From: Argopecten irradians
Lineage: Eukaryota > Mollusca > Bivalvia > Pectinida > Pectinidae
Assembly (NCBI RefSeq): GCF_041381155.1
Contig: NC_091138.1
Location: 30,931,604 to 30,995,603 of the forward strand
DNA: 64,000 bases
Reading direction: 5' to 3'
Positions within the stretch are counted from its first letter, which is position 1. The number at the start of each line of letters is the position of its first letter. Position numbers and translations under genes: made by a program. Shown in pieces: positions 6,370 to 44,068 of this stretch. The notes under the pieces are model-generated. The model was not told the origin of the DNA and made no database searches. It saw only the letters and a list, made by a program, of their open reading frames with translations.

Positions 6370-6380
6370 AACCTCGCTTA

Positions 6381-13036: not shown

Positions 13037-16000
13037 CTAATTGCCTGTAGATTCATTTCTCATACCCTTAAGAAAGTTCATCAAATCTGAAATGTAATAA
13101 TACTGAGCATTCAAAACAGTTATCAGGTAAATAAATATCAGACTAGGAAACCAAATCTTCTGGACAACCTCATGTTATCTCAAGTATACATAACATAAAA
13201 AAAGAAATACATGAAACGTTTTTTATACAAATCCATACGCTTTAATTGGAATTGGCTTATGGCTAAACATTTCGTGATTATGACCAAACAAAACCGCCCA
13301 TTTAAATGGACCGAAGTATGCTACTCAGGCTAAATAGGTGTATATGATTAAATCATTCTTCAATAGAATAATAATAAAGTGAATTATGGATATAATGGGA
13401 ATAGCGTGGAACATTACCGGCAAAATATGATGCTTCAGTGTGGTAGCACTATATACAAGGGACAATCCACTATTACAAGGAGGAAAAACACAAATATACC
13501 CCAGCCTCCTAAAATATACAGACGTCCACACAGCGCCACATATTGCATACATGGGAGGCCGTCCTTAAACGACCATGGCTGATAATAGAACGCTATGCCC
13601 AATAAACCGAACCAAGCCATGTCTGAAAGCTTACCATCTATGCCCGGGACACTACCGTTGGCGGGAACCACTACATACCTATTCAACAAAAACAGTAATA
13701 TAACATTCAACTTTTATGGAAGATTATTAATATTTGGTTACGCTACGAACGAAATATCAAAAGTAATATTATTCATGTATATGATATTAATGAATAATGA
13801 TGCCATGGTACGTATGACATTCACTGCTCAGATTTAGAATGATGTGAAGCTATAAAACGGAGGGTTTTACATGAGAGCTGATGACGTAGGCTTCCCCGTT
13901 GTATTTCGTAATGTGTTTTTTAAATAGTCAAATGCAAAATTAAAAACATAATTCTTATAACATTATGCTGATAAAGATAATAAAAATTTTGATTTGATCT
14001 TATGGCGGTACTGGGTAGGTGACTTCTCTACGAGATATCTTTTTTATTACTGACTTCTCTTACTTAGTAACAATCTTGATATGACCGCTTCGGAAGTCAG
14101 CCAGTCCACGCAGACAACTTTCAAACGCTGATGTAAGGACCGCATCTTTCTGATTCATTACTGCAACGTTAAGAGTCTATATCACTGACAGTTTTCATTT
14201 ATACACATTATCCTTTTCATACCGCCATTGTATATTACAGAGTTAGCTCCCTTGCGGTAGGTATTTATTACGACATCATTGGTTTTTTTTTTGGTAAATG
14301 TAAAATAACAAACCTGACATTATTGAAGATATGGATAGCAAAAGAATTGGTAAGATATTAATATTTCCCCATAAACTTCTTTATTTTAATACACGCAATG
14401 ATAATTAAATATTGATACTTATAACAACGAGTCGCTATCGACTTACTACGTTATCATTTTAACGGTAGTTTTATTTTAACGATTTTCGTGCTGTTTTTGA
14501 AGCGAAAATTCATGTACGTCGCTAAATTTCGTAAATGAATAACTCCTGTATCAAACTGTACCTTTATTTACAACGGCGGTAATAAATCTTAATTTTTGTT
14601 ACTGATTGCGCTAAAATTTGACTGCGCTATAGAATTGAGCTAATAATGTTGAATTGCAGGAGACAGCAGCATACTTCGCTGACGAAGTAGCAGACGACAA
14701 GTCTTTTTGGAATTTCGGAATATTTATATAAAAGACCCACTACGTTTTCAAAACAAAAGTTCCTTAAAATCCATGTTAACATGTCAACGCTGCTTTTCCG
14801 TCTGACGCGCGGTAATTAAGATGACGGCTGGAAACATAATACGACCCAAGTTATAAAGATCCATTTTAACTTAAATGTTTAGAAGCTAATGATAAGTGTA
14901 TTTTCAACAGTTTTTAACTTTTGTGACTCTACAGAATTAACAATCTCTTTTTATATTACCATTATAAAATCCAAGCCGTTTTGGTATCGGGTAAACTTTG
15001 TTCCAAAAATACAAAACCATGACGTCCCGGAATCGCAAGCGTCATTGGTCTCTTTGACTGCATTACATTCAGGTAAAATTTAGGCAAAACGTGTTATCTG
15101 CAAAATGTAAGGGTTAGATTACCAAACCGACGAATCTGTGATCGTTCTTCTACAGTTTCTAGCAGCTTCCTATGTCCTAAGGGCATGTGCTTCCGGAAAA
15201 CATCGGTCATTGTTTTATTACCTGGTTCAATGATTGATAATACATTCATTATCATTTGTTATGTAACAGATATAATCTTTATAAATCGAGGTCAATTTAA
15301 CAAACCATTCTTCAATCCATATTTTTGATATTGCATTTTGAAAGCTTAAAGATGCATGTATAAATGTAGGTACATTATCATTTACGCCATTTTAAAGGGT
15401 TAGGGTAAGGTTCTATAATTTGTACCTTTAATTAACCTAAAGATATCTATTTTTCAGACGCAAGAAATAACTCCGATAGAATTGTCCTTATTTCAAACTA
15501 CTGATTCAATACATGTACTTCTAAATGATATATATCATAAATTGTCATAGTTTTGACAAGCATTGGTGTGTAACATACATTGGATGTTCTAGCATATCCA
15601 GTGGTGCGCGTTAGCAACATATAGGTACTGTGCAGTGGCAATATTAATGTTTAAAACCAGTATTCTATTCAATAATATGTACAAAAATATTATCATTTGG
15701 AGTGTACTAATATACGTAGCTACTGCCAGTTTGATCTTTTTTCGTTTTTTTTGTAATAATATTTCATAAAAGACAATAATCATATATTTTTCCTCCCCAT
15801 AAAACCTTCTCATCTCACATTGATATATTGTTTAATTCAAAACATTTATATAAGATCGGTATCAATACATCTCTTTCGAGATTCCAAAAAGGCTCGGGCT
15901 AAGTCCGATGTACAGTCGATTAGTCCAATGTTTATCTCCGCGAAAAAGTAATTACCAAACTAACTTTGAAAGGTTATTTTATATTGATAAAAAAATCCGT

Positions 16001-19000
16001 GAAAGCTTATCTCCTCAAACTTGTTTTGGTACAGAGATCGCAAAATTTAGTAACCGGGAAAGGAAGCTGGTTTACAGTGATGTACATTTCCCAGTGTTTA
16101 TATCAAATATACACGCATTGATACTCAGGGTGAGTGACGTACGAAATGTACAAAAGACAAAAGATAACACTAGACGACTTTACTATCAATAAGGTATAAA
16201 TCTTACCTTCGGTATGTTTTACCCCGAGAGCAGCGTCTACCAATGGGAGAGTAGATGTTGGTGCAGCACTGGCCGATGTCGCCTACCAACATACCAATAT
16301 TACAGAAACACTAATTCAACACATGGGGGATCATATCGTTAATCTCGAGTAAAATTGAATCAATTTAATGCTTTTCATATATCAGATTACGATTGTGAGA
16401 TTGAACAATGTCATCATCATTAGTGTTTTATACAAATTATTATATAATCAGACATTGGAAATCGGGGCGAATTCACTATTCATTACTCCATGCGAAGATT
16501 TTCTTTTTCAACCATCTCGGTTATATTTTAATTGTAGCGTTCTTTTGAGCATCATGATCAAACCTCACTAGATTTCGCTGTCGTTTGTTGTCTTCAACTT
16601 TATCATTCTACTCGTCTCCTTTGTCTTTCTATTGCCATACATAATGTGATCGTGTTTGTTTTATGTGTGTCCTGATAAATGGACACATGCCTTGAAATTT
16701 CAACAAAATAGTTTGTCTACACGGTCAGAATTACTTTCTTGTTCCATATCAGAAGATACAATCAATTTATCACATAATCCGCATTATATCCAGTGCTTTC
16801 GCACATGTAATATTTTTGTGTATTACACTAGTGAAATATGACTTGGGCGATTTTATTGGCTGAAAATCCATTGTGACGTCAGACAGAAACAATAAAATGA
16901 CGTCAGGATTACGAGGACGGTGGGACAAAATGGCGGCCTCTGCTGGATTTTCCGAATACATTTTGACTTAAATTCTTTGTTATGTAGGTATTTTTTATTT
17001 ATGTGATAAAAAGAATCTTAAAGTGTTCATTTCATATGAGATTTTATAAAACGAGTCTTAATTTTTGCGAGCCTTGGCGAGAAAAAAATAAAACTTCGAG
17101 ACGAAATGATCACTCATGTAAGATCCTATATATATTCATCAAATGCATATATAAGTATTGGTCTGCTTTCTGTTGGCAATTGTGGGAGTATATATATTCC
17201 AACTGAACACTGACAACTTTAACATGAAGCGCTAGCTGGATACAGTTCAATGATTAGATATACATGTACTTTCCAATCTTTCCCAGGATTCATCGCGGTA
17301 TCCGCATTTCTCATTTTATTGAAATATGAAGGATAACCATAATACAAAAAAAATGTATACTTACATATATAGGTTTATCACTAACACCCTCAAACAGAAG
17401 TCCCTCTGGTAACGGCGTGTTAGGCCCATACCTAGAGAGTTAAGATCTACATATAAATCTTACACTTTGATGACAAAGAATGTCCTCATTATATGTATGT
17501 AATACACTTAACACGTTATCAATTCCTCCATATCTTTTGCAAGGTTGTGCAGCATTCCAATATTTCGTTAGATACAAATGATCTAGAAATAGTACATTAT
17601 TACACAGTAAGTGAAACAATCTCAACAGTATCTTCTGTTAGTTTATTACCAACGGATGGACATACTTTTGCTTGTACTTATGGCAATGATTTTAGTTATT
17701 TTAAAGAAAAACTCTAAATGTCTGACGTACCTAAATTTTATAGTGAGCTGACAACAAAGAAATTATATGAGGCCCTTTCGCAATATTGTTTGTATATATA
17801 TACAACGTACATCGCAATGATTGCCATTGATTTTCATTAAGTATTCTCATTTATGAATAAGAATAATCAATCAGCATAGATAAAAAGCGTGAAAAATGAT
17901 ATAATGTTGATACACATTTAATTGAAAAGCTTGCTCCAAACTTCAAATTATGATCTTATTACCATATTATTCTATCTCGGGACTAAAAACTAATATGTTA
18001 AGAAAAACAATATAATGAAATAGGAAACACATTACATCTATATTAATAAGATAAACCTACCCTTTAAAGAAATTGGATAGAACATTAAAAAATGTACTGG
18101 CCGAGAGAACGTCTGTAAATATAAAGCATAATTTTAATAGCTGTTTTGGGTGTTTAATGTGCGTATACATAAATTTGAATTAATTCTACAATGTGTAATA
18201 ATACTTCTCAAGTACCATGTTTATAATAACGTGCTAATTCTCTAATGTATTATTTTGATAATATTTAATGCATGAAAGAAGTAGATATTGATAATATAAT
18301 GACTAAGATTACAGATTGCAAATGTCAAGAAAATATCTTGTCTGACAGATGTGCTCTTTCAAATTGTTTATTCAATGCAGAATCCTGAATTATTTTTTTC
18401 GAAATTTCAATTTATGGAATAATAAGTTAATAAATCTCGTTTTCGGGAAAATAACGTAATGATATTTTACCGTGATATCCATTTAGTAATTCAGTCATCT
18501 TTCTCAGAGTAGATGCAACATCCTCCAGACATTTCGTCAGAGACGAGGAATCTGAGTCCTCAGCGGCATACATGGCGTTTAAGACACACTGTACATAATA
18601 TCAATGTGGGGTTATAGCGGAGCAAATAAGTGCATAAATTGTACACAAAAGCATGAAATACAGTTTATACCAAAAGAAATGTTTTAGCCCTGTTGGCCAT
18701 CGGAAAATACCCATATGACGTGACTGGCGGCCATTTTCCAATATGGCCGCCAGAAACATTTAAAAACAAAACATACCAGATTAATAGTAAGTCTTTATTC
18801 TGACACTTTCAGAATTTGCTACTTCTCAAACAAGGTTTAAATGGTTAAATGAATTATTGACTTATTTGTTCAATGTATCATGGCCTGAAATTGACCTGAT
18901 ATTGGCCGGAATTTCTGGTCAATTTCTGATCAATTTCTTAAAAATTCTTAACCAGGTTAAGGTCAGAAATCCATGTGAACTTCTGGAGTAATCATTTATA

Positions 19001-22000
19001 CAGGCAAACTTTCCTCAATTGAATTTCAGCTCAAGAAATCTTGACCTGAAATTGATCTGAGATTAGCCAGAAATTCTGGTCAATTTCTGGTCAATTTCCG
19101 ATCAAACTGAGGTCAGGATTTTAAATCAGGAATTAATGTGAAATTCTGGTCAATTTCAGGTGAGGGAAATTCGCATGTGTACAGTGACAAGCGGTTTTAC
19201 TTCAGCTCATGTACATCATATAAAAAAAATATAACCAGGAATAAAATCAAGGGAAAAGGTAAGATAATGGATACACGAATGTATTAACACTATAACTTGA
19301 TCCAATTGTGCTTTCCGGTGTTAATTTTCACTTGATTGACAGCTTACCTGTATTGCAGGTAAGAATGCTAGTTCTATTCCAAGTGATACTCGCATGAACA
19401 TTTCCGTTTCGTGGCCACCGGGAAACAAGTATAGCGGCTTGATGTTGCTAAAACATTATAACTGCAGTACTTAATAATGTATTAAAAATACAATAAAGAT
19501 GCAACTGGGTTTTGTAAATTATTTTTGATAACCACATGAACTAAATGAATATTTTTATTGTCTTCGTCGTCAAAATATATTTACTAAAAGAGATAATGTT
19601 TTTTGTTTTTTGTTTTTTTTAATTTTTACTTTACCGCAATTTAATGTTTTAGAGAATGATTATGACTCACCTTTCAGGCAATCCGAAACCATCGGCACTT
19701 TTCGTAAACGATAAATTACCTTTTTCGTTTACGGAAGGTACAGAAGTTTACCAATTGACTTTGTAGGGAAGAGTTCACAAAGAGAAACTACTGTTTTGGA
19801 AAGGTAAACAACTCGCACCAAAAAACGCTGACCGCCGTCCATCAAACCAAAGACGTTTTTGCCATAAAATATTTTATCTTACAATAAAATTGTATATATT
19901 TGAAATCAATTTGATTGCATATTTGAATGATTATTGTTACACGTTGATTTCAAGCCATTAAAATTACAACGTGTCTAAGTAAATAGTTATACTTACTCCT
20001 TTGTCAGTGGTCTGTAGAACAAAAGTAATAATAATCGTATTAAGTAAAAAAACAATTTCATTATAATAATAAAAATAAACAAAATCTGAGTCTAGCGTCA
20101 TGAACATTCCTTAACTTTTAGAAATCCCTTTAAACTAAATTTGCCATAGGAAACACATTGCATAAATTAAGAAAAGTTTGTTTTTAATTACAACATATGA
20201 ATATATAATGCCTTAAGTAAAGAAATTTGATGAACAAGTACAATATCTTGTTTTAATCTGGAGACGGATTAATTGTACTTGTTTCTGGATCCAATCTTTT
20301 TAAGACATGTATGTTGTACTGCATCCTTATTGACTAAATCTTGTTTAAACCAAATGTTGACGAAACTGTGCTTTGATTAGTTTTACTTTTATACAAACAA
20401 CCACAACGTGCAAATTACGAGTACAATGCAAAACAGGAACTCCAAATTGTCTAATACTTTATCATTACAAGTACCACCTAACCTAACCCCCGTCTTAGTA
20501 AGGATATAGAAATGTAATGACCACCTAACCTAACCCCCGTCTTAGTAAGGATATATAAATGTAATGTCAGCAGTTCACTGTACTATTCAGTACTCTGATA
20601 AACTTCTCCTCCTAACTAACTCCATATGCCCATAAAGAATCATAGAAGTTATAAGACTCCAACCAGATCTATTTAAACAATAATGCATTAATATTATGGT
20701 TTGAAAAAAATACGTGGCGGCTGAAATGGACACCCTCGCTTAATTTTTGCATTCCATAAGAATATTAAATAATTTCAAAGATTAGAGAAAATAATAAAGT
20801 GACAGAGTCTACTACTTCGTTTTGATTTGATAATATGTCAACATATTGTATTAGATTAATGTAATCTTAGATGGGTCTGCAAAGTGGATAAGGATAAGTT
20901 AAACCAAACCCAAATGTCCTGGCAACACGAGGCTTCTGGAGTGTTTACCGGCTAAAATCTTACACGAGGGTTGAGATGCCACCGTCGACTTTACAGGGCG
21001 AATTTTTCCCATTTATAGAAAAAATTACAAAATTTTGATAGCTTATAATTAATATTTATTTGTTTTCATACCAAATCTGGCTTTCTGATTGGCCAATATT
21101 TTTTTTGTATACCACTAAAAAAAAATCCGAGATGGCGCGAAACCCCGACGTTATTGTGATGTCTCAATAGAGACATTGACGTTGCGTATTGATTCGGAAA
21201 AAAAGACTCCCTTGAAAAAACACTATAATGTTACATTTAAACATACTTCGTTTTATCAAATAGAGTATAAAAATTAATTATAAGTATTGATGTCACTACT
21301 TTTAAATTTTATCGGGTTTTGAAACAATTTTTTTCATACCCCGATAAAATTTAAAAGTAGTGATATCAATACTTAAGTGAGCATTATGTATGCGTCTTGT
21401 ACTTCCTAGGAACAACGCCATGACACTGTGATGGTAGGATCTTACCCTGTTTTGAAAGCAGAACAACTGAATCTGAATCCGAGGAGGAAATTCAGGAGTG
21501 CCTAGCCATGAGGATTGTATATCACATAGCTACCATCCTTACGGGTAGGTATCGATTGTGACGTCAATATTTTGTGAGCGAAACCCACGCCGTTAATTTA
21601 TTAATTAAAAAATTGTTACAACATTCAACTACAGCGTCAATTTTTCCCGCGAACTAACTTGGAGTCAGTAAACGAGACTCCCATTCAAGTATATACATGT
21701 ATTAGGTATCATTATACCAAGTCTAGGTTGCATTAATTCAGTAATGATTAAGTAATGGGAGTGACAGAAAATTAATATTCTTAACTGTATTACATTACGC
21801 TCGCAAACACATGACGTCACAATCAATCAATAGCCATCCTCAAGGGTTCAAGGGTTAACTCTTTATATGCAATTGCATCTCAAGTCACCTTCCATACATA
21901 CTCACGCTTTCGGGTCAACTGGTCGCCAGTTCCAAAGAATGACGTCACAATAACAAATTACTGGCGGGAGTGATAGTCTCTCAGACACGCCGTAAAAGGG

Positions 22001-25000
22001 TATTGCTATACATTTGGGTATTCCCTGCAATATGAAGTTGATACGTCACTAAGTTATATTTAACGTATATAATATGTATGTATAATTAACTTTAGGAGAA
22101 GAATACCATGATAGATAGCTTGTGTAACAGAAAAGGAGAAAAAGGACTGGCTTAACCGGGACTCGAACCCAGACCTCCGACTACTAGCCAGATACTCTAG
22201 CTGTTTAGCTGCTACTTGGTCACCGATATTCGACCTAGTTCAGCCCTGCTACACTAATTACAAAAATAAAATATCACACTTATCTATTATTTTATCTTTT
22301 TTATTGTTATTATTAATTTTTATTACCTTTGTGGGATTATTTGGTCCATTTTGCCAGACATAACCAGCTACAATAAAGGACAACTGCAAGTGTGCTAATC
22401 TCAGTTCCGCTTGTCCATTAAGTTTCTTATGGTCCAGCAGTTCGAGCTCAAAAAGAGATACACAAACTGTTTGATAATACGCTAAAGATGAACAGCCAAG
22501 GAGATAAAATAAATGACAAGTTTTATTTACGAACTCAAATCACACTTATGATAGCAATGGCCAAATTAGAGTACACGGTACAATTATGATATTATTATAT
22601 ATTTTATTATTACATAAACAACAATATCACACAAATCATATAAGTTATTTGAATATATTGCTATGTTGTACATCTAGAATTCATGAAATGCACAAATAGT
22701 ATCCAAACTTACATTTCGTTAATTCACATATTATCATTTAGTTAAACGTTCTACTAACAGCCAGGGACATGTAAAAACGAGCTAAGTTTGATGGTGAAGA
22801 AATTCGGAGTACCCGGAGAAAAACCACCGACCAGCGGTCAGTACCTGGCAAATATACATATAGTTAATTCATAAACTAGATAACCTAGACACACACCACT
22901 CTAGTAAGCAACATCATAAAGACTGGGTTAATGGTGATTTATGATAATCATGATGACCATTAAGCAGGTGTTGTCTTTACGTTGCAACGTTTACCTTATC
23001 CACGTGTTCCCAAACGGTTTTATTTTCTATCAGATCGACTAGGCGGCTTGATATATTGGTCCATGGCTGGAAATATTCCGGTAACTTCTCCTGTTCAACA
23101 AAGAATGGTAAACATATTTAGTATTGTTCCTTCAATTAAGCTATAATAAAGCTTTGGACGTTCTTTTAGACTTTCTATCAATGGTGGGAAAATGCATCAG
23201 GGACTTTGAATTATGGCTGGTCAGTTTCGTCTGCCTGTCCATACGAATGAAAACATACGAATGATACCATACGGGGAAAGACACACCATGTAAGCTGTGA
23301 TGGCCCTAATATCGCTATCAAATTACTATTATAATACATGTATATTCAATTCAGTTTTACTATGATTATACCATACATATCATTAGATAACAGAAATTCT
23401 AGAATGAAGGAGATATTGATTTTAGTGGTAACATAGCCACGTGTTGTAGTCGTTAGTACCATAAATATGCTTGTAGATACACTCGAATTTGGTTTAACAT
23501 ATTTATAGTTATATGTTCCTAGTTGTTTTTCCAGTACCGGCACAGTTAAGTCCCTCTCTACCGGACTCGGTAACGGATACGGACCAATCACAAATCAGGA
23601 TTTGAGAAATTGGTAGGAGATTTCGCGTGCAACTACACCGAAACCAGCGTTGACCCCGGTCCAAACATGAACATGGAATTGGTAAGTTTTGGGTACATTT
23701 TTCTAAATGTATACTTTTACCCAAGACTGGATATTTTACCCAAAAATAGATCGTAAGCTACTTTATTAATATTTTACCGGGACATTTTGACATTGTGTTT
23801 ACCCAATGTCTGTTAAATGATAGTAGCAGAAAATACTAGAGTATCTTGATTAATGTAAATTTGTAAAGTAATACCCAATAATTATTTCTGGGACATTTTC
23901 ATATCTGAACTATTTTATCAAATAATGTACAAAGTTTATCAATCAAATATTGTACTGTGAGCTTGAACCAATAAGGATTGTGAATTTCGTGAATGTTGTT
24001 TTTATAATAAATTGTAAACTGTATTTTCTGTCTCTGGTTTTCTTTTGGTCACAGTGCTAGGCTGGGAACAAACTTTTTTTTATGTAAACAGTCCTTACCC
24101 AAAACTCGGACACGATTATTATACCGGATAAAGGAAACGTTACACTATATTACAGTTAAAGTTCCTTCCCAGTTAATATTACCTTATAATTATTTAAAAA
24201 TTCTTGTCTTTTTTTTCTATATTTCGTCTTCTCTATTTTATATATATTTTAGCTAATTGAACAACTTCAGGAAGATTATTCCATGTTCAAGTAGTTCTGA
24301 TGGCGAATGTTTTGCTTCAAAGCGTGATCCTGAATTGACGTTGGGATATCATCTTTATGTTTCTTAACATATTAATCATGGTAAACGTATCTTCTTTATT
24401 TTCAGCATATTCGGGAATACAAAAGTTGGCGATGAAGGGCTCATATACTGACAATAAAGTAAATGCATTTATACGTTTTAACAATTAATCGCTTAACAGT
24501 TGAATACGGGTTTGAAATTTCTCGCAAAGATGAATATTTTGCGAAAATAAACTCGATTATATGTGATTTATTGACAATACACACGCTAGAGAAGGACAGT
24601 TCTTATGTTATTTTTGTTATGTTTGAATATAGAAAGATCGGTATGCTATACATACATTGTCAGTATTTGTTGATGTATTCTCGTCAAGGTTGCATGGCGA
24701 GAACAGCCGTAGTGTTTACATATATTAACTAAGTTCATGTGAGGCCATATCATACATATACAGTAAAGGTCAGATTAGGTCAGTCAGGTATCTAGGACAT
24801 CAACAACTATAGGGTCATAATTCAAGACCTGTGGGTCTCTTTTAACTTAATATGTCGTTCTATTAAGACAGTCATAGCATTAAATGCTTTCAGTATTTGA
24901 CTAATATCAAATACATTCCCGATATGTATGAAAAATTCGATATATCAGTAATGACATGTTGATATAGCTAGCACACGACCGATCTTTATTTTCATAACAC

Positions 25001-25546
25001 CTCGGACGAGTACCTATAATTATGCATACTGTAGAATATATTTTCCGTTCGATAGTCTCGTGATTCTTTAACGTTAAGGACCATGACCTCGATCAGCTAA
25101 CCTGAAATTGTAATTCACATTATATTTACCTGTAAGACTAGGGTCTCTTGCGAGTTAAGTATGGTAATCACACCTGGTTATACAAGTTTACATACAATCT
25201 GTATTGAGATTCGTTTTTTGAAAGTTAAAACGTGCTTTAAGTCAAATCAGACAGGGCATATTGACTGATTGGGAAGAGTTGATAGTTGTTCATAAAAGCA
25301 GGTGTGTTCATTCTAAAATAAATCGATACACAGGTACATGTAAAATCATACGTAGCTACTCGTGTTAACACCAAGCTCACCTAGTCCTATAAATATAGTG
25401 TATTACATTATTTCTCAGAGATGGGATCATGATCCTTACAAAAGTACATATTATATACCAACCAAAATATCTCCATCTGCAAATCCAGTCGTTTCGGAGA
25501 CGTCGAAATCTCCTAGATTGATTTTGTTATTGCTACCCTCCATCAT
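13037..25546 (-). CDS. IDO-family protein, 14 coding exons, probable non-canonical heme protein
   Basis: Exons in gene order: 25463-25546, 22995-23090, 22327-22446, 21906-22024, 19997-20011, 19348-19447, 18471-18588, 18061-18112, 17365-17431, 16207-16282, 15123-15221, 14064-14160, 13635-13678, 13037-13086. All junctions are GT-AG with matching phases; the sum is 1137 nt, 378 residues and a stop. Seen: the IDO fold landmarks LAHLQLSFIVAGYVWQNG, LPPVICYCDVILWNW, FPGGHE, LPEGLLFEGVSD, FRKHMPLGHRKLLE, ADFRSGHIKIVTKYV and LMNFLKGMR. The proximal heme histidine (human IDO1 His346) is kept in RSGHIKIVTK. Human Arg231 is Ser (FFNVLSNFF), GGSAGQS is SASAAPT, and GTGGT is absent. Family knowledge: IDO opens the tryptophan indole ring, and abalone myoglobin is an IDO derivative. 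Inference: heme is bound but ordinary tryptophan dioxygenation is unlikely. The first donor (TTG|GTTGGT) is weak, so that boundary is the least sure. The start is the first of two adjacent ATG codons. Confidence 0.9.
13545..13615 (+). repeat. SINE 3' tail remnant
   Basis: GGCTGATAATAGAACG followed by CCAATAAACCGAACC resembles the molluscan SINE tail (GGCTGTTAATAGGACGTTAA). A similar fragment with GGGAGGCTGTCCTTAAA is at about 12135-12175. Confidence 0.5.
14229..14285. mobile_element. MITE, same family, truncated copy 2
   Basis: Only the left terminal repeat remains: TATATTACAGAGTTAGCTCC, then CTTGCGGTAGGTAT. Confidence 0.65.
14710..15000. repeat. Dispersed repeat, second copy (IDO-family intron)
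   Basis: Related to 1283-1705 in the same orientation. It lies in the intron between exons 11 and 12 of the minus-strand IDO-family gene. An open frame read through it is repeat-derived, not an exon. Confidence 0.65.
18885..19180. repeat. Foldback or minisatellite-like element with TTCTGGTCAATTTC units
   Basis: Several degenerate copies of TTCTGGTCAATTTC on one side and GACCTGAAATTGA on the other. The right end reads GCATGTGTAC. It lies in the intron between exons 6 and 7 of the minus-strand IDO-family gene. Confidence 0.6.
19679..19757. repeat. AATCGGGAACC hairpin family, copy 1 (degraded)
   Basis: CAATCCGAAACCATCGGCAC pairs with its mirrored half ending in ACCAATTG. Compare 29621-29698 and 59749-59824. 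Confidence 0.6.
19997..20011 (-). other. 15-nt microexon of the minus-strand IDO-family gene
   Basis: On the minus strand TTGTTCTACAG precedes ACCACTGACAAAGGA and the donor GTAAGT follows. It encodes PLTKD with the flanking exons and joins NWRPVDPKA to NIKPLYLFPGG. Length and phase equal those of the plus-strand paralogue's microexon. Confidence 0.87.
20473..20566. repeat. Tandem duplication, 47-bp unit, two copies
   Basis: The unit begins ACCACCTAACCTAACCCCCG and includes CTTAGTAAGGATATA. The two copies differ at one or two bases. In an IDO-family intron. Confidence 0.9.
21122..21240. repeat. Dispersed repeat, pair of 45608-45725
   Basis: Shared text: CCGAGATGGCGCGAAA (here) versus CCGAGAATGGCACGAAA, then CAATAGAGACATT.ACGTT and a GATTGATT-like block. 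In an IDO-family intron. Confidence 0.6.
21281..21375. repeat. Palindromic hairpin, 37-nt arms
   Basis: TAAGTATTGATGTCACTACT plus TTTAAATTTTATCGGG is mirrored after a spacer of about 23 nt. One mismatch was seen in the arms (GATGTC against GATATC). Confidence 0.88.
21530..21875. mobile_element. MITE, same family, copy 3 with internal insertion
   Basis: The left part CGGGTAGGTATCGATTGTGA and the right part CGCTCGCAAACACATGACGT match the family. About 170 bp of unrelated AT-rich sequence separates them. In an IDO-family intron. Confidence 0.7.
22140..22250 (-). repeat. tRNA-derived SINE-like fragment
   Basis: On the minus strand GGTCTGGGTTCGAGTCCCGG gives a B-box, and an A-box-like TAGCAGCTAAACAGCTAGAG lies upstream. 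The cloverleaf does not close well, so it is a tRNA-like head rather than a working tRNA gene. Confidence 0.5.
22757..22860 (-). repeat. SINE fragment (molluscan core type), minus orientation
   Basis: Complement reads TACTGACCGCTGGTCGGTGG, TTTTTCTCCGGGTACTCC and CCCTGGCTGTTAGTAGAACG, matching 34078-34250 block by block. Confidence 0.8.
23545..24150. repeat. Dispersed repeat B, inverted copy of 190-925
   Basis: Lies inside the first intron of the minus-strand IDO-family gene. It begins with GGTAACGGATACGGACCAAT and ends near GATTATTATACCGG, the complement of the other copy's ends. Confidence 0.85.
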
Positions 25547-25655: not shown

Positions 25656-25668
25656 GATTTATATATAG
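25656..25668 (-). promoter_or_regulatory. TATA box of the minus-strand IDO-family gene
   Basis: On the minus strand TATATATAAATCC lies about 110 bp upstream of the ATG, with CCAATC immediately downstream. It resembles the TATA box of the divergent partner gene (TATATATAAACC). Confidence 0.55.
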
Positions 25669-28892: not shown

Positions 28893-29620
28893 TCTGAAGC
28901 GATCTCCATCAGCTGCAAACTCATTGTGACGTTTAATGAAATGACAGAAACATTTAAATAACATGACATCAGGATTTCAAGTCTTCATACATGCCATTGT
29001 CATAGCATTGCCATAAAGCAGGCAAATCATGTAAAGTCTACTACACCTTTTTACAATATATTCAGAGTAACTTAATAGTAATCTGTAAGATACAAAAATG
29101 TACGTGCCACTATCATTAAACATTTGTTTAACATGATCTAACCATCTAAACCGTATTTGTCCATTGCGATTTAAACTCAGTATTAGTCTATATAAGATAT
29201 TGCTTCATTTATTTTCTTTTGACAAAAGGATGTTCCAAAGTTTTAACATTCTCAACTTTACCTTTTTTTCTAACGGATATCTTCCCAATTCACCATAGAT
29301 CATAAACCCAGGCGTGCTAGTCCTAGCATTTAAAATTCGTGTGCAATACTAAAGGTGAGTTTGTTTTAAAAGATTTAAATCTTCGTTTAGTCATATGCAA
29401 ATTGACTTTGTGAAATAATCGATATGAGGAAATAATTGAAACACGGACATCTTTGGCATGGGGAAATAATTCAAATGAGAGAAGTGCTTACATTTCATGT
29501 AGCGGTTAGACAGGTACTACGAACTAGCCCGATATTCTACTGATTGAGCTTCAATATTTTAATGTATATTGTACCTGGTCGCCGATGATAAGCCAAGACC
29601 ATTCCCCGCTTCGCCCAACA

Positions 29621-29698
29621 CAATCGGGAACCTTCGGAACTTTCCGTAAACGAGAAATATTTTCTCGTTTACGTAAAATGCCGAAGGTTCCCGATTGA
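29621..29698. repeat. AATCGGGAACC hairpin family, copy 2
   Basis: Arms CAATCGGGAACCTTCGGAAC and its near-perfect complement, with the axis at AAATATTTT. It lies between the two IDO start codons. Confidence 0.85.
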
Positions 29699-30583
29699 GT
29701 TCCCAACGGTGAATGAATTTCTTGTTTAATGGAACGATCGCACATATTGACATATCACAGTCTTACAACATAGAACGTGAACTTGAACTTTTGAGCTTGT
29801 GCACACTAACAAACAATAACACACAATGATCAGACACTGGATATCTTGCAAGCTTGCCAACCTAGGGAATACCAGAAATCACGCGACCGCCTTTTGTAGT
29901 TAAAATAGTTCTAAGTTGTTTTGATATATAGGTATTCTAAAAATATATACAGCTCAATGACATGTGCATTATAGAAATAATTTTTTACGATTTTAAAAGT
30001 CAATTTACATTAGATGGAATGCTTTACACCTACAACACTTCCAGAGCTAAAATGAATAATTTTGTTGTCCAAGTTAAAAAAAAATCCATCAGAAAAATAT
30101 TAACACTTTGCGCCAATAGGAAAAGAAACTCGCATGTGCATTTAATTGTAGTATGACTACGAGAGCTATTCTTATTAAATATTGCATTGTATGCATGTAG
30201 CTAGTTTCACTTCGAAATCTATACTGATCTGCTTGTCTATACAACATGGAAGAATTTTATTGGTAATATATTTTATGTGGTCAAATAAAATATCTGACAA
30301 CCAACATATGAAGCCGTGAAATCGTTCATACAATGTTTATTCAATGCATGATATTTTTTGCAGTTGAGGTAGTTCGTTCATACCTTATTAATCACATAAA
30401 TGATTTATTTACTATTTTATTATATATACATATATGTATATGTGTATTTTTCCAACGGTAGTATTTGTTTCCATACTTTGAAACGAAAAGCAGGTGTTGT
30501 CATTTGTTATTTATAATCTTGAAACTCGTCCAAGATTCCCAGAAGTGACAGCTAACGTGTTTCCAAAAATAAAATTAAAAAAA

Positions 30584-30596
30584 ATATATATAAACC
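30584..30596 (+). promoter_or_regulatory. TATA box of the plus-strand IDO gene
   Basis: TATATATAAACCCC lies about 40 bp upstream of the start codon, which predicts a very short 5' leader of roughly 15-25 nt. The position is inferred; there is no transcript evidence. Confidence 0.6.
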
Positions 30597-30633
30597 CCAA
30601 CGTCAGGTAATTGTTTCAATCTGCTGTGAAATC

Positions 30634-36600: not shown

Positions 36601-39600
36601 ATAACTCCTTAAAACGCATCGCCATTTCAAAATAACCAAAATGGAATAAAATGATGTTTACATAAGTGTGAATTTGAATACGTATAAATGTCTTATGCTT
36701 AACACAATTCATTGGTGTTTTAGGCGTTGGAACTCTCTCACTGGAAGAGGTCGAATCGAAATATCTTGTTTCGAAAGACCTGGGGTTCTTAATAGATTGC
36801 TCTAAGGTATTGCAATATCCATTAATATTCCAAAACATTATTAAAAACGAAAAGAATTAAAGGGAGAATGTAAAAATGTAATAAATGAGATGGAAAATTT
36901 TGCATTGCTCATCCATCTTGATGAAGTATAACTGGTTTTCATTGAGAAACAAGTAATATCCTCTATTTTAATGGAATTATTATAAGAAAAAGTAAACAAT
37001 AATGATGCAAGTTTTTTATTTTTGATTTAGCAATTGATAACGTTACATGTTTTACTAACATGAAATATCTATTACATACCAATCTTCGTCTACTTTGATT
37101 CTGTATTATACCACAAATATCATTGTGCTAGGTGAAGTTAGCAGACTGTTGGCGCGATTTTGAAAGATTAGCTGCGGATTTGACATATCATGTGGAAATA
37201 AAACCATTCGAGTGGAAGTCGAGAGGGTATACTTTTATTATACATATATTTACATATTTTGAAAAACAAAATTGTTCAAATATCTGCATGTGATTTTTTT
37301 TTATTTTCAATCATTATTTTTTATCGAAAGCATATCTACATAATAAGTGAATAAGGCATGCAGACAGAAGAATCGTCTGTCATCTCTTTGTTAATAACAC
37401 ATAGGATCGTTCTGTAATACGAACGACAACATATGCTATTTTAATATGACTTTCCAGATGGAGACATCGTGATTAGTCGCACTGGCACGTGTTGTCATTC
37501 AGCCAATTAGCGACTGTAATACATCAACAAGATTTAAGAACACATCGTCACTGTACCTGCTTTAATATTTCAGCTTAACGGCGACCATGCCACACCAAAG
37601 AACAAATTAGAACAACTTTGTCTACACAAGATATTGACATTCTTAACATCTGGATATGTGTGGCAGGATGGCGAGAGAGACGTCCCAACGGTAAAAAGAC
37701 TTTTTATTAAAAAAGATCAACCTTGGTCAAAACCTATGGACTCCCCAATGCTAATTTTAAGTCAAATATCAATTGGGAATTATGTACTGTCGAAGTCCTA
37801 TATTTATCAATTTAAATATTCTCAAGTATACCCAAGAAGTGATAAATAGGCATACAAAAGATCACTAGTATAATTAGGGTATAAATCCTTAAAAATTTGA
37901 TCCTAATTGATAGTTTTCCTGACGTTCACAAATGAAGCTGCCTGTGTTGGTTGTACTAAATCTTAGGCTTTGCTGAGATTGTCTTAAAACTTCCAGACAC
38001 TTCCCACCTGCTTAGCACTACCACTGACTCGAGTATCAAATGCTCTCGGTATAAAACCTATATTAAGTTACCCGAGTATGATTTTGGCAAACTGGCAACT
38101 TAAGGATCCAAAAGGGCAAGTATATCTAAACTGTTTTTGACACAACCTTCATGAAATTCATAAAAAGATATTTTTTTAATAAACAAGTTTTTCAAAGTAG
38201 TTTTTGGCTATCCCGATGACCTTGTGTATCTGATGAACCGAGAATAATGCAATATTATTTTTAACGAATTGACTATTGAAAAATGACTATTTTGTCAGTA
38301 ATAATATGTACATTTGTATTGTAATACACACGCCTCATTTGACAATTATATGATTTATCTTTGTTGAACATGCAAGAAAGTATCTATCCATATTTTCTTG
38401 TTCTTTATTTAAGCGTTCTTTTTTCCAGGCCTTTTGACTTCGAGTGAGTAAACAGTTTTGCTTTGTTCACACTTAAATGATTCAATCGGATTGAAAAAAT
38501 ATGATAAATTTATGTTTGATTTTGATTCAGTATGATAAGTATTATTTGTATCTTGATATACAACAGAATAAAAAATATGAAAGGATGATTCTCTTGTTAT
38601 TGCAATTGGGACCGTCCAATGGTCAAATGCAGATCATTGCACTGGGTATTTTCATCAATGTTTCAAAGGTAAGGAGATCAATATTAATAAATCGCTACGT
38701 TTAATATAAAGGGAATATTTCATTCAAACAGTTTTAGGAAACTTTAAAGGGTAATGTTTAGCCAGCTTAACGTATATTAATCAATATTTGCAGTTTGCAC
38801 TGACATGGACTCAATAACCATGCTTACTAGTATTATCATTATCAGTGCATAATGATAATACAACACGTGCGGCGATTCTATTGTTACGGGAATAGTCGCT
38901 GGCGTAGCAACGTCGGGTCATGACCCCACTTTTGGTGGGAAAATATGAATGACTCGATTCCAATCAGCTGTTCAATCGAGAGAATGAAAATATGGGTATT
39001 TTATTAAAAATTTGCAACTGTCGCGAGAATAAATAATATCTATTTGCGTGAAAAACTGTAAATATAAAGATTTTTTTTTTTATTTTGTTTAGGTGATGAG
39101 GGTATAATGATAATGGAGCCCGTGTGAATTTTATGTAACCCGGCTTCGCAACAAACCTCAACAAAATTAAAATCTATTTCTTAATTACGCTAGTTATAAA
39201 TGTATTAAGTTATGCAACCGCTTTGATATGTTTGTAAATATAAATAGAATAATATAGCTATTAAATCGCCTCTCAAATAAGTCATATGTATGTTAAAACA
39301 TACCGTATTGTTGGTTATTTTCGTGGGGATGCTATTTCGCAATTTCGCGGGACATTGCTGATGATCGCGAAACTTTGAGCCGCGAAATGGTAAGAAATGG
39401 TTAAATCATATATGGAAACCAGATCACTAAACTTTAAACCGCTAAAATTAAATTTTCTCTATTTGAATTAAAATCGCCTAAAAGACTAACTACAGGGTAA
39501 TAGTTTATTTTTTTTTAAAGAAAATTCTTCTTCTTTTTTTTTTAACTTATATTTTTCATTTTTTTAGACAACATATTTACAAATACAAATGAGTCAGTAT

Positions 39601-42600
39601 GGGGAAGATGAATTTACGAATTATTCTAATTTTAACTAGGAATTTGCAAGCCATGTATCAGACTCCAGGTGGTGATGGGGCGGAATGGTTCATCCTCACC
39701 CACGTCATTATAGAACAGAGGTTCGCACCAGCTATCAAGGTAATTCAATGTGAATGGATTTAAAATATCCGCGAGAAGATTTAACACGTTGCTGCTCATT
39801 ATGGGAGATCTGCAGGAATGAAGTCACGCCTCGTATTCGGATACGCACGTGTACTTATAACACATTATTTTTTCAAAGTAAATTATTATCCTGTCAAAGT
39901 AAAATCGGATTTCTGTCCTATTCTTGTTTCATATGCATACTGAGATGATATTCAGTACAGTTTGCAGTAAGAATATAACTAAACTGCGGGTCGCAAATTC
40001 AATCAGCAATTTCAATTTGACAGGATAATTCACTTTGAAAAACAATGTGTTTTATTCAATGTCATAGCAGAATTTGTAGCAAACACAATGCAAAATGCAA
40101 AGGCATATGTGGTACCACGGTAGTTTGATTGACAGCTGCGATCTGTCGATTCCAGGTGGATGAAAACATTTCAACATGTTGAAATATTTTGTAAATGCAT
40201 TCTCTCTTGATTCGTTACCAAAGTTTTTCCTCTGAGGTCGGCGACAAAGCAACAATATGGGAGTGGAAGCAATAAGTAAAGTAGATTATATTGAATTACT
40301 TTATATCGGTATAAATATTTGTTAAATCGCGTGTGTTTTGTCTATCACAGACATAGATATATATCATACATTATTCTATTCCATTTTTACCTATAGGCTG
40401 TCATTGATGCCGTGAAGTATTCATCAGAAGGCCACGAAGACAGCGTTGCTCTGATCAAAGCATTGGAGGTTATCCCGGCGGTTATGACAGACATGATTGA
40501 AACCTTCAAAAGAATCAAAGGTTTGTTGTCACTGAGTATTCAAATAATTAAGTGTCAACATAAAGTAAATATAACCTTTCATTGGAAGTGAGACAAATGC
40601 AAAGACAAAAGTCTAAATCTAGCACAACTAGTATTAATGGCAACAAATGTCGCCCTAACACTGTGCGGAAACGAAACACAATGTATTAAACGATACAGTA
40701 CAGACCTTATTCCGATTAGCTTGATCATAACAAATTTCCATTGTCGACATTTATAAATTTGGTGAACACTTCATATTTTTATAAAATTGGTTTTATTTTG
40801 ACAGATTGTGTTGAACCGGAGCATTTCTACAATCATCTAAGGATATTTTACTCTGGGTATTTTTACACGAAAGTTTTCAGAATATGAATCTATATTGAAT
40901 TATATTTATTTCATTGTGTATAGATATAAATGAGAAAATATCTGAAAATTTTTATTGATACATCTGATTTTTTATTTGATTTATAAACATGAGACAAATA
41001 CTATCAAATAGAATTAATTCCTATCATGGTAAGCTTTTCAATATTAATTAACAATTAAATTACTAAAGTAACTGATTCAATATAGTAAAATTACGTATTA
41101 ATTACTAAGTATTTGATATGATGTGGCAATGATAACATTAATGCATTATCTGTTGTAGTTGGGGTGGTGGCAATGAACCGCTTCCGAACGGTCTTATCTA
41201 TGAAGGCGTGTCCCCCGATCCAATACCTGTATGTATACTTATAGATATTTTGGTAAAGTGTCAAATATTTCACACACTAGATATTGAAATTATTTGGCAT
41301 TAGAAGTTGTTCTTAATTGAAGTAAATAATAAATTATTTTTAAGCTAATATAATTTTAAAGTTCTTTGTAAATAATAAGAATAATATAGCATTTTACTTG
41401 TGAAAATTAATTGTACGTTTAAAAGGAAAACCGTTAATACGATTTACTCTTCTGTGCCCTTTTTTTCTTTATTGCATTAATGCCTCAGAATTAAGAAGCA
41501 TATGTTTGGAGACTGCCAAGATTGAAGACTTGGAATCTGCCTCTAATTTGTTAGCGATAACAACTATATGTGTTAAATATGTACTGTCTGATAACTTGAT
41601 TAAACTTCAGTCTAGACTACTTTGACTTTCAGATGAAGGGAGGGAGTGCGGCACAAAGCACCACCCTACAAGTACTAGACGCGGCGCTTGGTATCACACA
41701 TAGCGGAGGCATGTTGAATGTCAAATTATTTTACGTGGAAACTTCATTTTTCGTTTTTATACCCAACGACATTTTCCCAGAAATTTAATGTCCTACTTTA
41801 CCTGTATATTAAGGAGATTTTTTTCGTAATTTTCATTCGCCTGCAAAATTCAATCGCACACAAAAATAAGTTGTTTTATAGTATATAGCGTATGATATTT
41901 AATCAACCAAACACAGCTGACTTTTTATTTTATTTGTGATATTAATGTGCTATACTCAGTTTGTAAAGATTTTTATGCATCTGTAATGTTCCAATTGCGA
42001 TAATTATAATACATGTATATATATAGTGATAAAACATATGCATTGCTAATAATTATTATACAACTAAATAGACAGCCATTATTATATAACGAAATGGATA
42101 GTCAGTATTATAATAATATACAAATTGTAAATAACAGCAAATGCCTTAATTTCCGTATATTCTCAATATTTCCTATTTTGAATAAAAACGTCAGGTTCCA
42201 TGCATAGTTCGTTATTACAATGTACTACATACAATATGAAAATCACATATTGTGTCTCTTTCGTTTCAACAGATGAAAAAGCATTTTTGGATGAAGTTAG
42301 AGACTACATGCTAGAAGAACACCGCGATTTCTGCGATTATTTGTGGAACCATAGCAACATACGGAACTATGGTAGGAACACATTCCTTTAATCGATATCG
42401 ATTTTGCAGTTTTTATTAATATCGAATGATTCTTTGCAAATTTAATAATAACATATAAAACCACCCAAGAAAAAATAATGATCGGTTTTGTATGCATTGT
42501 TTAAGTAAACTGGCGATCCGTCAAAATATTGTGAGCTAATGAAATACATGTACATTGTATGTAATGTAAAGGTGGCAGCTGATCAGGATTTGAATAATTT

Positions 42601-44068
42601 CATTGTAAAACAATGTACAGCTATTGCACTGATCAAAGAATAAGCTGAAACATATCCTCATTTGTTACCTTGTACATTTTACATGTTTGTATGCTTCAAA
42701 GCTTTGTGGCATTTGATATATTTTTAGTAAGTGGGAGTGGAAACGATGACGTCCAAAAGGCCTATAATGCCTGCATCGACGCGATCAAACGCTTCCGGGA
42801 ACATCACAAAGGCAAAGTCATCCTGTAAGAAAGCAGTCCTTTGATTGATACATTTTGCTGATAAAAAGTATTTAAAAAATGTCTTTAATATAATATATAT
42901 AATCTCACAGCTATCATTTTGCTATCTCAACTCAATTCAACTTAACTCAAGATATTGGCTGACTAACACGAGGCTTGCCGAGTGCAAGATTTTGTTGGCT
43001 AACCAACACGAGCTTGCAGAATGTCAGATTTTGGTGGCTGACCAACACGAGACTTGCCAAGTGTAAGATATTGGCTGACCAACACGAGGCTTGCCAAAAT
43101 CTTATTCCAGAGTAGAGATATTCCTGTCCACTTTCAGTATTTGTTTTTGTTATTTTCAAATATTGCTTGTATCACGCCATTATCACAAGAACGCCGTTAT
43201 TGATGAAATTTTCTATAAAGTACGTCACATGTATTGAATACATTATGTAATTGTCTAACACGTCTAACACATTCCTGTGAGATATGGGAGAAATAATTTA
43301 ACCATAAAACCTAAAATGGACCAATAGACGATTATAACATTAAAAATATAACGCATAATTGTTTTTACCTTAAAGGACATGTTCCTAATGATAATAACAA
43401 GGTCATTAACTCGTTAAATCTGGAAATTTCCGATTGATTGAATATTTTCGTTAGGTTTACATTTTCATAGATAAAAAGCAAAAGTCAAACCAAAACACTA
43501 TTTCCATTCCGATATTGATTGATATCAATTTATGTATGATTCAATATTCAGATACATTAGGACGCCTTCCACAAGAGCGGATAGAAACAAAGATGTGGAT
43601 GGAATCCGCGAAAGAGGAACCGGAAGCACCCGTAAGTTGCTTTACACTAAATTAGATTTTAAGATCATCTAACTTATACTGTAAACTAATATATTTGTGC
43701 GTGCGATAGAAAATCGCGAAAATATATCTCCGCAATGATCGAAAATAAGTTGGTTTACAGTGCTTTGTGTATATTTTTACTGGTGATTTCAGTTTGGTGC
43801 TTTTACATAAGATGGTTTTTTTTTCGTTTTGCATTTCTTAAACCTCCAATGAATAGCAGATAAGCTTTATTGTTGAAAATCTTTTCATATATTTTGATCA
43901 GATCGCCAATGTTTTTGTACTTTCACAATTTTTAGTGACACTGCATTGATTCTGACCAACAATAATATGCATAACACAAAGTCGATATTTTTATCATCTG
44001 TTATAGCTTATCTTGACTTCCTGAAGAAAGTTAACAAAGACACTGACGACAGCAAACTGGAGGTATAA
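30634..44068 (+). CDS. IDO: Indoleamine 2,3-dioxygenase, 15 coding exons
   Basis: Exons: 30634-30643, 36724-36806, 37132-37226, 37574-37690, 37997-38115, 38429-38443, 39640-39739, 40397-40520, 40805-40856, 41159-41228, 41633-41708, 42273-42371, 42728-42824, 43552-43631, 44007-44068. IDO is a cytosolic heme enzyme converting tryptophan to N-formylkynurenine. Seen: FLTSGYVWQDGE, GIKPILSYPSMILANW, TPGGDGAEWF, EPEHFYNHLRIFYSG (human IDO1 Phe226 and Arg231 kept, Phe227 is Tyr), PNGLIYEGVSPD, GGSAAQSTTLQVLDAALG, FREHHKGKVILYI (proximal His kept) and RGTGSTPYLDFLKK. The first exon codes only Met-Ala-Ala plus one base and is followed by a 6.1-kb intron. Introns after exons 5 and 11 have GC donors. 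Exon 3 is one base short compared with the minus-strand paralogue, which breaks the frame once near 37196-37203; this is either an assembly error in an A-run or a real lesion. All other phases agree. The closest relatives I recall are molluscan IDO and abalone IDO-type myoglobin. Confidence 0.9.
31802..31855. repeat. Tandem duplication, 27-bp unit, two exact copies
   Basis: The unit ATAGTCTTTATTTTGATTCC plus TGCTCAT is repeated without change. In the first intron of IDO. Confidence 0.95.
33246..33451. mobile_element. MITE, Harbinger-like, 206 bp with TTA duplication
   Basis: Starts GGCCAAACAAATATATGTTT and ends with the mirrored ATATTTGGTTGGCC; TTA lies directly outside both ends. The terminal repeats extend to AGGGTTAC. 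In the first intron of IDO. Confidence 0.82.
34078..34250 (+). repeat. SINE with tRNA-like head, plus orientation
   Basis: B-box-like GTTCGAATCCCATT, then TACTGACCACTAATCGGTGG, TTTTTTCCGGGAACTCC and the tail CCTGGCTGTTAATAGGACGT ending in ACCAAA. In the first intron of IDO. Confidence 0.82.
38114..38121 (+). other. GC-AG intron donor after IDO exon 5
   Basis: The exon end reads AAAGG and is followed by GCAAGT, the usual consensus of GC-AG introns. Using the nearby GT at 38120 instead gives the wrong phase for the microexon and a stop. The homologous donor in the minus-strand gene is an ordinary GTGAGT. Confidence 0.8.
38429..38443 (+). other. 15-nt microexon of the plus-strand IDO gene
   Basis: A poly-T tract and AG precede GCCTTTTGACTTCGA, followed by the strong donor GTGAGT. 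With the GC donor of exon 5 upstream and the acceptor at 39638-39639 downstream it reads PFDFEN, which fits the PLTYEN segment of human IDO1. The homologous microexon in the minus-strand gene (19997-20011) is also 15 nt and in the same phase. Confidence 0.88.
41706..41714 (+). other. GC-AG intron donor after IDO exon 11
   Basis: The exon ends GGAG and is followed by GCATGT. This is the only donor giving the 76-nt exon and phase 1 needed to join ALGITHSG to DEKAFLDEVRDYM. The paralogous exon is also 76 nt but ends at a normal GTAAG. Confidence 0.75.
42951..43103 (+). repeat. Minisatellite, about four units of about 38 bp, in IDO intron 13
   Basis: The unit is close to TTGGCTGACCAACACGAGGC plus TTGCCAAGTGTAAGATA. 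Units differ at several bases. Confidence 0.88.

What the first reader, a model, noticed from the sequence alone, without database searches (positions are those of the whole stretch)
13037..44068. Divergent head-to-head pair of IDO-family genes, one apparently catalytic and one not
Both genes were rebuilt from splice sites and phase. The plus-strand gene keeps the IDO active-site signature; the minus-strand gene is fully open over 14 exons yet has lost several catalytic elements while keeping the heme-ligand histidine. Molluscs are known to have evolved a myoglobin from IDO (abalone and relatives). That protein kept the GTGGT and GGSAAQS motifs, so this gene would be a different and further-departed non-enzymatic heme protein. 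Its intact frame across about 1.1 kb of coding sequence argues for selection.
Basis: partly seen in the sequence, partly recalled or inferred. Interest (0 to 1): 0.88.

Follow-up and report, generated by a model that had tools for sequence, protein, structure and literature searches.

The report
IDO relative without its tryptophan grip
Two genes for relatives of the tryptophan-degrading enzyme IDO lie back to back in an animal genome; one is intact but has lost the parts that hold tryptophan while keeping the heme pocket, so it is probably a heme protein with another job, while its neighbour keeps the enzyme's parts but has an unclear beginning.

Summary
The minus gene (25546 to 13037) is complete: 14 exons, ATG to TAG, 378 residues, 13 of 13 introns GT-AG; Pfam IDO E=2.1e-90. 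Against 14 other IDOs (neighbour, two human, 11 bacterial) it changes 9 of 25 otherwise invariant residues; no other row changes more than 2 of 16 to 18. Lost are R231, G261, Q266 and the GTGGT loop, which hold or surround tryptophan; kept are the heme ligand H346 and R343, D274, Y126 and F163. Best reading: an intact IDO-derived heme protein that no longer works as a tryptophan dioxygenase. Gas binding or sensing is plausible but untested.

The plus gene keeps the catalytic signature, but its start is unresolved: no ATG was found, the expected full-length exon 2 does not join exons 1 and 3 in frame, and two introns need GC donors. Shorter in-frame choices for exon 2 exist, so it is not shown to be broken.

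Inactive IDO relatives are known (abalone IDO-like myoglobin). This is a variant of a known kind. No animal genomes could be searched: organism, orthologues, expression and dN/dS remain unknown.

The parts
25658..25667 (-). TATA-like stretch about 115 nt upstream of the minus-gene ATG
   Evidence: read in sequence; may be chance in an A+T-rich region
25463..25546 (-). minus gene exon 1 with ATG
   Evidence: N-terminal IDO-like stretch FDVSETTGFADGDIL, inside the PDB and Pfam matches, phase-0 donor
22995..23090 (-). minus gene exon 2
22327..22446 (-). minus gene exon 3 (AGYVWQNG)
21906..22024 (-). minus gene exon 4 (Y126 region)
19997..20011 (-). minus gene exon 5, 15-nt micro-exon
   Evidence: same length as the plus micro-exon
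19348..19447 (-). minus gene exon 6 (F163, S167)
18471..18588 (-). minus gene exon 7
18061..18112 (-). minus gene exon 8; F226 F227 kept, R231 replaced by S
17365..17431 (-). minus gene exon 9; Y249 replaced by F
16207..16282 (-). minus gene exon 10; DE-loop GGSAAQS reads SASAAPT; D274 kept
15123..15221 (-). minus gene exon 11 (MPLGHRKLL)
14064..14160 (-). minus gene exon 12; R343 and proximal heme ligand H346 kept
13635..13678 (-). minus gene exon 13, 44 nt against 80 in the plus gene; GTGGT loop absent
13037..13086 (-). minus gene exon 14 with TAG; helix DLMNFLK as in human IDO1
36724..36806 (+). plus gene first recognised coding exon; no in-frame ATG found
37132..37226 (+). plus gene exon 2, extent uncertain; the full 95 nt do not join exons 1 and 3 in frame, shorter versions do
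37574..37690 (+). plus gene exon 3 (SGYVWQDG)
37997..38115 (+). plus gene exon 4; ends at a GC donor
38429..38443 (+). plus gene exon 5, 15-nt micro-exon
39640..39739 (+). plus gene exon 6 (F163; H at position 167)
40397..40520 (+). plus gene exon 7
40805..40856 (+). plus gene exon 8; R231 kept
41159..41228 (+). plus gene exon 9
41633..41708 (+). plus gene exon 10; GGSAAQS; ends at a GC donor
42273..42371 (+). plus gene exon 11
42728..42824 (+). plus gene exon 12; H346 kept
43552..43631 (+). plus gene exon 13; GTGST
44007..44068 (+). plus gene exon 14 with TAA

Best explanation
The minus-strand gene is an intact, protein-coding paralogue of the IDO family that has been released from tryptophan dioxygenase work but kept for its heme site. 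Shown: complete frame and splice sites; family membership; loss of R231, G261, Q266 and the GTGGT loop; retention of H346, R343, D274, Y126 and F163. Inferred from the human IDO1 structure: with no arginine for the carboxylate and no GTGG loop to hold the ammonium and carboxylate and close the distal pocket, tryptophan cannot be positioned over the iron, so the dioxygenase reaction should be lost or very weak, while heme should still bind through H346. Inferred further and weaker: the open heme site binds a small ligand (O2, NO or another), so that the protein acts as a gas binder, store or sensor, functionally like the abalone IDO-like myoglobin, though whether by the same descent is unknown. 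Rough odds: intact gene under selection 0.85; no useful tryptophan dioxygenase activity 0.75; heme-binding product 0.75; O2 binder 0.35.
For: Complete 14-exon model with 13 of 13 introns GT-AG and consistent phases. Pfam IDO 303.9 bits against a cut-off of 26; human IDO1 and IDO2 chains match over residues 9-14 to 355-356 of 378 at E 2e-68 to 4e-65. Leave-one-out test over exons 3-14: minus changes 9 of 25 columns invariant in the other 14 rows; each of the other 14 rows changes 0 to 2 of 16 to 18. R231, G261 and Q266 are present in 15 of 15 other rows; the four letters TGGT in 13 of 14 other rows that reach that region, the plus gene having TGST. Paper PMC5700043 (passages read): R231 ion-pairs with the tryptophan carboxylate and is critical for binding and recognition; [quoted passage not shown] Stop-free survival under neutral substitution is 47 of 2000 at 0.1 per site. 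Exons 3-14 differ from the paralogue only by zero or multiples of three in 12 of 12.
Against: No transcript, orthologue or protein evidence. No direct test of selection (dN/dS) was possible. Four of the nine changed invariants (Y249, L292, Y298, F306) were not named in the active-site passages that I read, so part of the loss may be general acceleration; the minus branch is long (1.72 against 1.12 for plus), though the relative-rate test is mixed (chi-square 5.38, 0.01, 4.57, 2.92 with four outgroups). Eleven of the 14 comparison rows are bacterial, some close kin, so the rows are not independent. The first glycine of GTGG is alanine in four of the bacterial rows. The retained hydrophobic pocket (Y126, F163, F226, F227, S167) would still suit an indole or another aromatic ligand, so activity on another substrate is not excluded. 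In human IDO1 truncation of part of the JK loop costs only about fourfold (PMC5700043, passage), but that is the N-terminal fragment, not the GTGG part.
Confidence: 0.6

Rival explanations
1. The minus gene encodes an enzyme with a changed substrate: the heme and the aromatic pocket are kept and the amino-acid clamp is given up, so it may oxidise an indole or another aromatic without carboxylate and ammonium groups, or act as a peroxidase.
For: Y126, F163, S167, F226, F227, D274, R343 and H346 kept while residues that read the amino-acid part are lost (PMC5700043 passages).
Against: I know of no such IDO relative (recalled; not searched for); the loop that encloses the pocket is gone, which should weaken any substrate positioning.
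Confidence: 0.15
2. The minus gene is a non-catalytic signalling protein, in the way proposed for vertebrate IDO2 and for IDO1's tyrosine motifs.
For: IDO2 is said to 'represent a sort of pseudoenzyme', with effects unlikely to come from kynurenine (PMC8097162, passages).
Against: The tyrosine of the second IDO1 motif (VYEGF) is phenylalanine here (LFEGV), and the first (VPYCQL) reads IPFYGV.
Confidence: 0.1
3. The minus gene is relaxed and on its way out: an enzyme gene that lost function recently and has not yet gained stops.
For: Long branch; nine otherwise invariant residues changed.
Against: No stop, no frame change, no broken splice site in 14 exons; simulated neutral copies rarely stay stop-free beyond 0.1 substitutions per site; the core heme-site residues (H346, R343, D274, Y126, F163) are kept, which blind decay would not favour.
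Confidence: 0.12
4. On the neighbour: the plus gene is a sound IDO gene whose unclear 5' part is a matter of annotation or sequence error (a shorter exon 2, a sequence error in it, and a start in an unrecognised upstream exon), not of decay. This does not compete with the reading of the minus gene.
For: Exons 3-14 open with the active-site residues; Pfam 5e-78. Eleven shorter candidate exons in this place have a length that is a multiple of three and no stop, among them two of 60 nt.
Against: The in-frame versions that overlap the IDO-like stretch would be at least 12 residues shorter than minus exon 2. Two of 13 introns need GC donors (0.7% by a binomial at a recalled 1% rate), and no ATG was found; together these also fit early decay.
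Confidence: 0.6

Closest known systems
IDO-like myoglobin of abalones and other Vetigastropoda (39 kDa)
   Same: IDO-family protein of about this size (378 residues here) that is reported to have lost tryptophan metabolism (cited as a manuscript in preparation) and to serve as oxygen carrier (PMC4191572, passages).
   Different: No sequence was available to compare.
Vertebrate IDO2
   Same: Divergent IDO paralogue, very weak enzyme, said to be perhaps 'a sort of pseudoenzyme' (PMC8097162, passages). That it lies next to IDO1 in vertebrates is recalled.
   Different: Human IDO2 keeps R231, GGSAAQS and GTGGT; the minus gene keeps none of these intact.
Molluscan genes annotated 'myoglobin-like' or IDO-like (Biomphalaria, Lymnaea)
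   Same: IDO-family genes of molluscs; the Biomphalaria one is named myoglobin-like, the Lymnaea one is a single transcript found in all tissues (PMC9481534, passages).
   Different: The Lymnaea product has 443 residues and is described as an IDO; no statement on R231 or GTGG was seen in the passages read.
Human IDO1
   Same: Family, heme ligand H346, R343, D274, Y126, F163, S167 (wild type), F226, F227 and the last helix DLMNFLK.
   Different: R231, G261, G262, Q266 and the GTGGT loop absent in the minus gene.

Membership tests
IDO protein family (Pfam PF01231) | Significant match to the family profile over most of its length | tested here: met
   minus 303.9 bits, E 2.1e-90, profile 2-363 of 412; plus exons 3-14 263.1 bits, E 5e-78, profile 71-411; cut-off 26. 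A 49-residue piece of plus exons 1-2 gave no match
IDO protein family (Pfam PF01231) | Proximal heme-ligand histidine (H346 of human IDO1) | tested here: met
   H in minus, plus and the 13 other rows that reach this region; one row (L016) stops before it
Tryptophan-cleaving IDO enzyme (minus gene) | R231, ion pair to the substrate carboxylate | tested here: not met
   S in minus; R in 15 of 15 other rows
[quoted passage not shown]
   absent; exon 13 is 36 nt shorter than in the plus gene; no Gly-Thr-Gly codon pattern on that strand in 12001-13640
Tryptophan-cleaving IDO enzyme (minus gene) | Kynurenine formation from tryptophan | not testable with these tools
   needs the protein
Tryptophan-cleaving IDO enzyme (plus gene) | R231, GGSAAQS loop, GTGG motif, H346 | tested here: met
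   R, GGSAAQS, GTGST (second glycine pair changed at one position) and H
Tryptophan-cleaving IDO enzyme (plus gene) | Open reading frame from start to stop | tested here: inconclusive
   no ATG found; full-length exon 2 does not join in frame, shorter versions do
IDO-like myoglobin (Vetigastropoda) | IDO-family protein without tryptophan dioxygenase activity | tested here: inconclusive
   inferred from lost residues only
IDO-like myoglobin (Vetigastropoda) | Common descent with the abalone protein; reversible O2 binding | not testable with these tools
   no mollusc sequences in the collections that I could search
Pseudogene (minus gene) | Stops, frame changes or broken splice sites | tested here: not met
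   none in 14 exons and 13 introns

The most novel reading that the evidence does not exclude
The minus gene is a second, separate departure of IDO from enzyme to heme protein: unlike the human and bacterial IDOs compared here, it has discarded the whole substrate clamp (R231, DE-loop glycine and glutamine, and the GTGG loop) and retained only the heme cradle, as a conserved gas-binding or gas-sensing protein of its lineage.
Probability: 0.3. Interest if true: 0.65.

Novelty: new variant of a known kind. Interest (0 to 1): 0.46.

Why it matters
IDO-derived myoglobin in abalones is a known case of an enzyme turned oxygen carrier. A gene that has lost the tryptophan clamp so completely while keeping the heme site would show which parts of the fold are needed for heme and gas binding alone, and would make the enzyme-to-carrier step testable by comparing this gene with its neighbour. 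It would also warn against annotating such genes as tryptophan-degrading enzymes by profile match alone.

Tried and rejected
The window's own genome is not held, so copy number and orthologues could not be counted. A first scan of bacterial and archaeal genomes with a four-row profile found no relative; a second with a shorter profile found 5 loci. Two phylum-wide draws gave 7 of 398 and 2 of 395 genomes with a match, each count including one genome already known. One bacterial row (L016) stops before the C-terminal region and was dropped from the invariance count, leaving 14 comparison rows of 15; because the plus row starts at exon 3, the count covers exons 3-14 only. The positions T379, T382 (lost) and G380 (kept) lie in the shortened loop and depend on where the gap is put. 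Search for a Gly-Thr-Gly stretch in the last intron of the minus gene: none. Search for an upstream ATG exon for the plus gene in 29001-36700, phase 1 and strong donors only: two candidates, neither IDO-like by eye.

A claim that I dropped on checking: I first read plus exon 2 as carrying a certain frame change that breaks the gene. Shuffling tests give little support for the similarity of its first part to IDO (2019, 947 and 647 of 5000 shuffles score as high), some for its last part in the other frame against minus exon 2 (57 of 5000) but not against IDO2 or IDO1 (1645 and 1235 of 5000), and shorter in-frame exons exist in that place. So I no longer call the gene broken, and I raised the odds that it is sound from 0.5 to 0.6.

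tRNA genes: none. NCBIfam on the minus protein: no match at E up to 0.1. Papers on bivalve IDO duplicates or on such a gene: searches, of which searches found no paper; of the others I saw the listed titles and abstract starts only (for instance 15 of 1,343), apart from passages of PMC4191572, PMC5700043, PMC8061021, PMC9481534 and PMC8097162. None of what I saw describes such a gene, but the library holds only open-licence papers, so this is weak.
Full report
What is there. The finding spans two genes of the IDO (indoleamine 2,3-dioxygenase) family that point away from each other. I rebuilt both from the sequence. The minus-strand gene runs from an ATG at 25546 to a TAG at 13037 in 14 exons with 1137 coding nucleotides including the stop; all 13 introns between them are GT-AG and all phases join. 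Its fifth exon is 15 nucleotides long. The plus-strand gene has 14 matching exons between 36724 and 44068, including a micro-exon of the same 15 nucleotides in length. Seven of the 14 exons (4, 5, 6, 8, 10, 11, 12) have exactly the same length in both genes, and all 12 of exons 3 to 14 differ by zero or a multiple of three. The first coding exons lie 11.2 kb apart, so this is not a pair around one short promoter.

Chance is excluded: the minus product matches the Pfam IDO profile at E=2.1e-90 and the plus product (exons 3-14) at 5e-78, and both match solved human IDO1 and IDO2 chains along most of their length. The two products share 34% identity over 317 aligned residues. A tree of 16 rows with bacterial IDOs puts both with human IDO1 and IDO2 at 100/100 support, but does not settle whether the two window genes are sisters, and the minus branch is long (1.72 against 1.12 for plus).

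The plus gene. Its active-site residues are there in exons 3-14. Its 5' part is unsettled. The first recognised coding exon resembles the N-terminus of human IDO2 and IDO1 more than 8 and 24 of 5000 shuffles allow (but not that of the minus gene, 1021 of 5000), and has no in-frame ATG. The exon at 37132-37226 stands where exon 2 should be and is 95 nucleotides long against 96 in the minus gene; taken whole it cannot join exons 1 and 3 in frame. Its likeness to IDO is weak by shuffling, except for its last part against minus exon 2, in the frame of exon 3 (57 of 5000). Eleven shorter candidate exons there would be in frame, among them two of 60 nucleotides. Two introns need GC donors, after exons 4 and 10. 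So this gene may be sound with an odd start, carry a sequence error, or be in early decay; I cannot tell, and I put 0.6 on its being sound, up from 0.5.

What the minus gene has lost and kept. I aligned it with the plus product (exons 3-14), human IDO1 and IDO2, and 12 bacterial IDOs; one bacterial row stops early and was dropped, leaving 14 comparison rows. Of 25 columns invariant in those 14, the minus protein changes nine: R231, Y249, G261, Q266, L292, Y298, F306, T379 and T382. When each other row is left out in turn, it changes 0, 1 or 2 of 16 to 18 such columns; the plus product changes 2 of 18. So the minus protein is unusual even against rows that are more distant in the tree. It keeps 16, among them the heme ligand H346, R343, D274, Y126 and F163. 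T379, T382 and the kept G380 sit in the shortened loop and depend on where the gap is placed. The comparison rows are not independent: 11 are bacterial and some are close kin.

Reading these in structure. In human IDO1, by the passages that I read of PMC5700043, the tryptophan carboxylate pairs with R231, its ammonium and carboxylate groups bond in a network with the GTGG motif of the JK loop and G262, and the pocket is lined by F226, L234, F163, V130 and Y126. [quoted passage not shown] in my rows the first glycine is alanine in four bacterial ones and the third is serine in the plus gene. In the minus protein R231 is serine, the GGSAAQS loop reads SASAAPT, and the JK loop is shortened so that no GTGG remains, while the helix after it (DLMNFLK) is identical to the human one. 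Of the lining, F226, F163 and Y126 stay, V130 is I and L234 is F. The pattern is thus selective: the parts that grip the amino-acid end of tryptophan are gone, the heme site is not.

Selection. With no orthologues I could not compute dN/dS. The indirect evidence is the clean frame. In a simple simulation of substitutions without selection, 908 of 2000 copies of this coding sequence stayed stop-free at 0.02 changes per site, 284 at 0.05, 47 at 0.1, 1 at 0.2 and 0 at 0.3 and 0.5. The two window genes agree at 49%, 58% and 33% of first, second and third codon positions over 317 codons, as expected for long purifying selection on proteins, but this averages both lineages. A relative-rate test is mixed: minus has more unique changes than plus with three of four outgroups (56 to 34, 49 to 30, 46 to 31) and about as many with human IDO1 (50 to 49).

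Most likely mechanism. I propose that the product folds as an IDO, binds heme through H346, and cannot hold tryptophan for dioxygenation. The iron should be free to bind a small ligand. Oxygen carriage, as in abalone IDO-like myoglobin, is the best precedent (PMC4191572, passages), but sensing or another ligand is as open. An enzyme with a different aromatic substrate is a real rival because much of the pocket is retained. A signalling role is less likely because the IDO1 tyrosine motifs are not kept (motifs from PMC8097162, passages).

Known and new. IDO relatives without tryptophan activity are reported in Vetigastropoda, a snail IDO-like gene is annotated as myoglobin-like (PMC9481534, passages), and IDO2 is said to be perhaps a sort of pseudoenzyme (PMC8097162, passages). 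What differs here is the complete loss of the substrate clamp in an intact gene. I could not compare with the abalone protein, nor confirm that the host is a bivalve, since none of the sequence collections that I could search holds animal genomes. I therefore class it as a new variant of a known kind, with moderate interest.

Noticed in passing
window 2251-6400, minus strand: Decayed LINE-type element (name recalled): pieces with reverse transcriptase matches (3060-3518 and 3431-3751, Pfam RVT_1) and a below-cut-off endonuclease match (5987-6388), in different frames; the pieces 2251-2736 and 3768-4256 had no Pfam match.
   Followed up: partly
window 7173-8300, minus strand: DDE transposase of the DDE_Tnp_4 kind in pieces (7173-7589 and 7655-7882); the piece 7866-8141 had no match. 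Probably Harbinger-like (name recalled).
   Followed up: partly
window 61526-63886, plus strand: Exons of another gene: a PAN domain piece (61526-62029) and a sushi-like piece (63488-63886, just under the Pfam cut-off).
   Followed up: partly
window 38115 and 41708, plus strand: Two GC donor sites in one gene of 13 introns; at a recalled 1% rate two or more would occur in 0.7% of such genes.
   Followed up: partly
window 18870-19160, minus strand: Several repeats of a unit like 'aaattgaccagaa' in the intron between exons 6 and 7 of the minus gene, seen while reading.
   Followed up: no
window 42960-43090, plus strand: Short degenerate tandem repeats (units like 'gaccaacacgaggcttgcc') in the intron before plus exon 13, seen while reading.
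   Followed up: no
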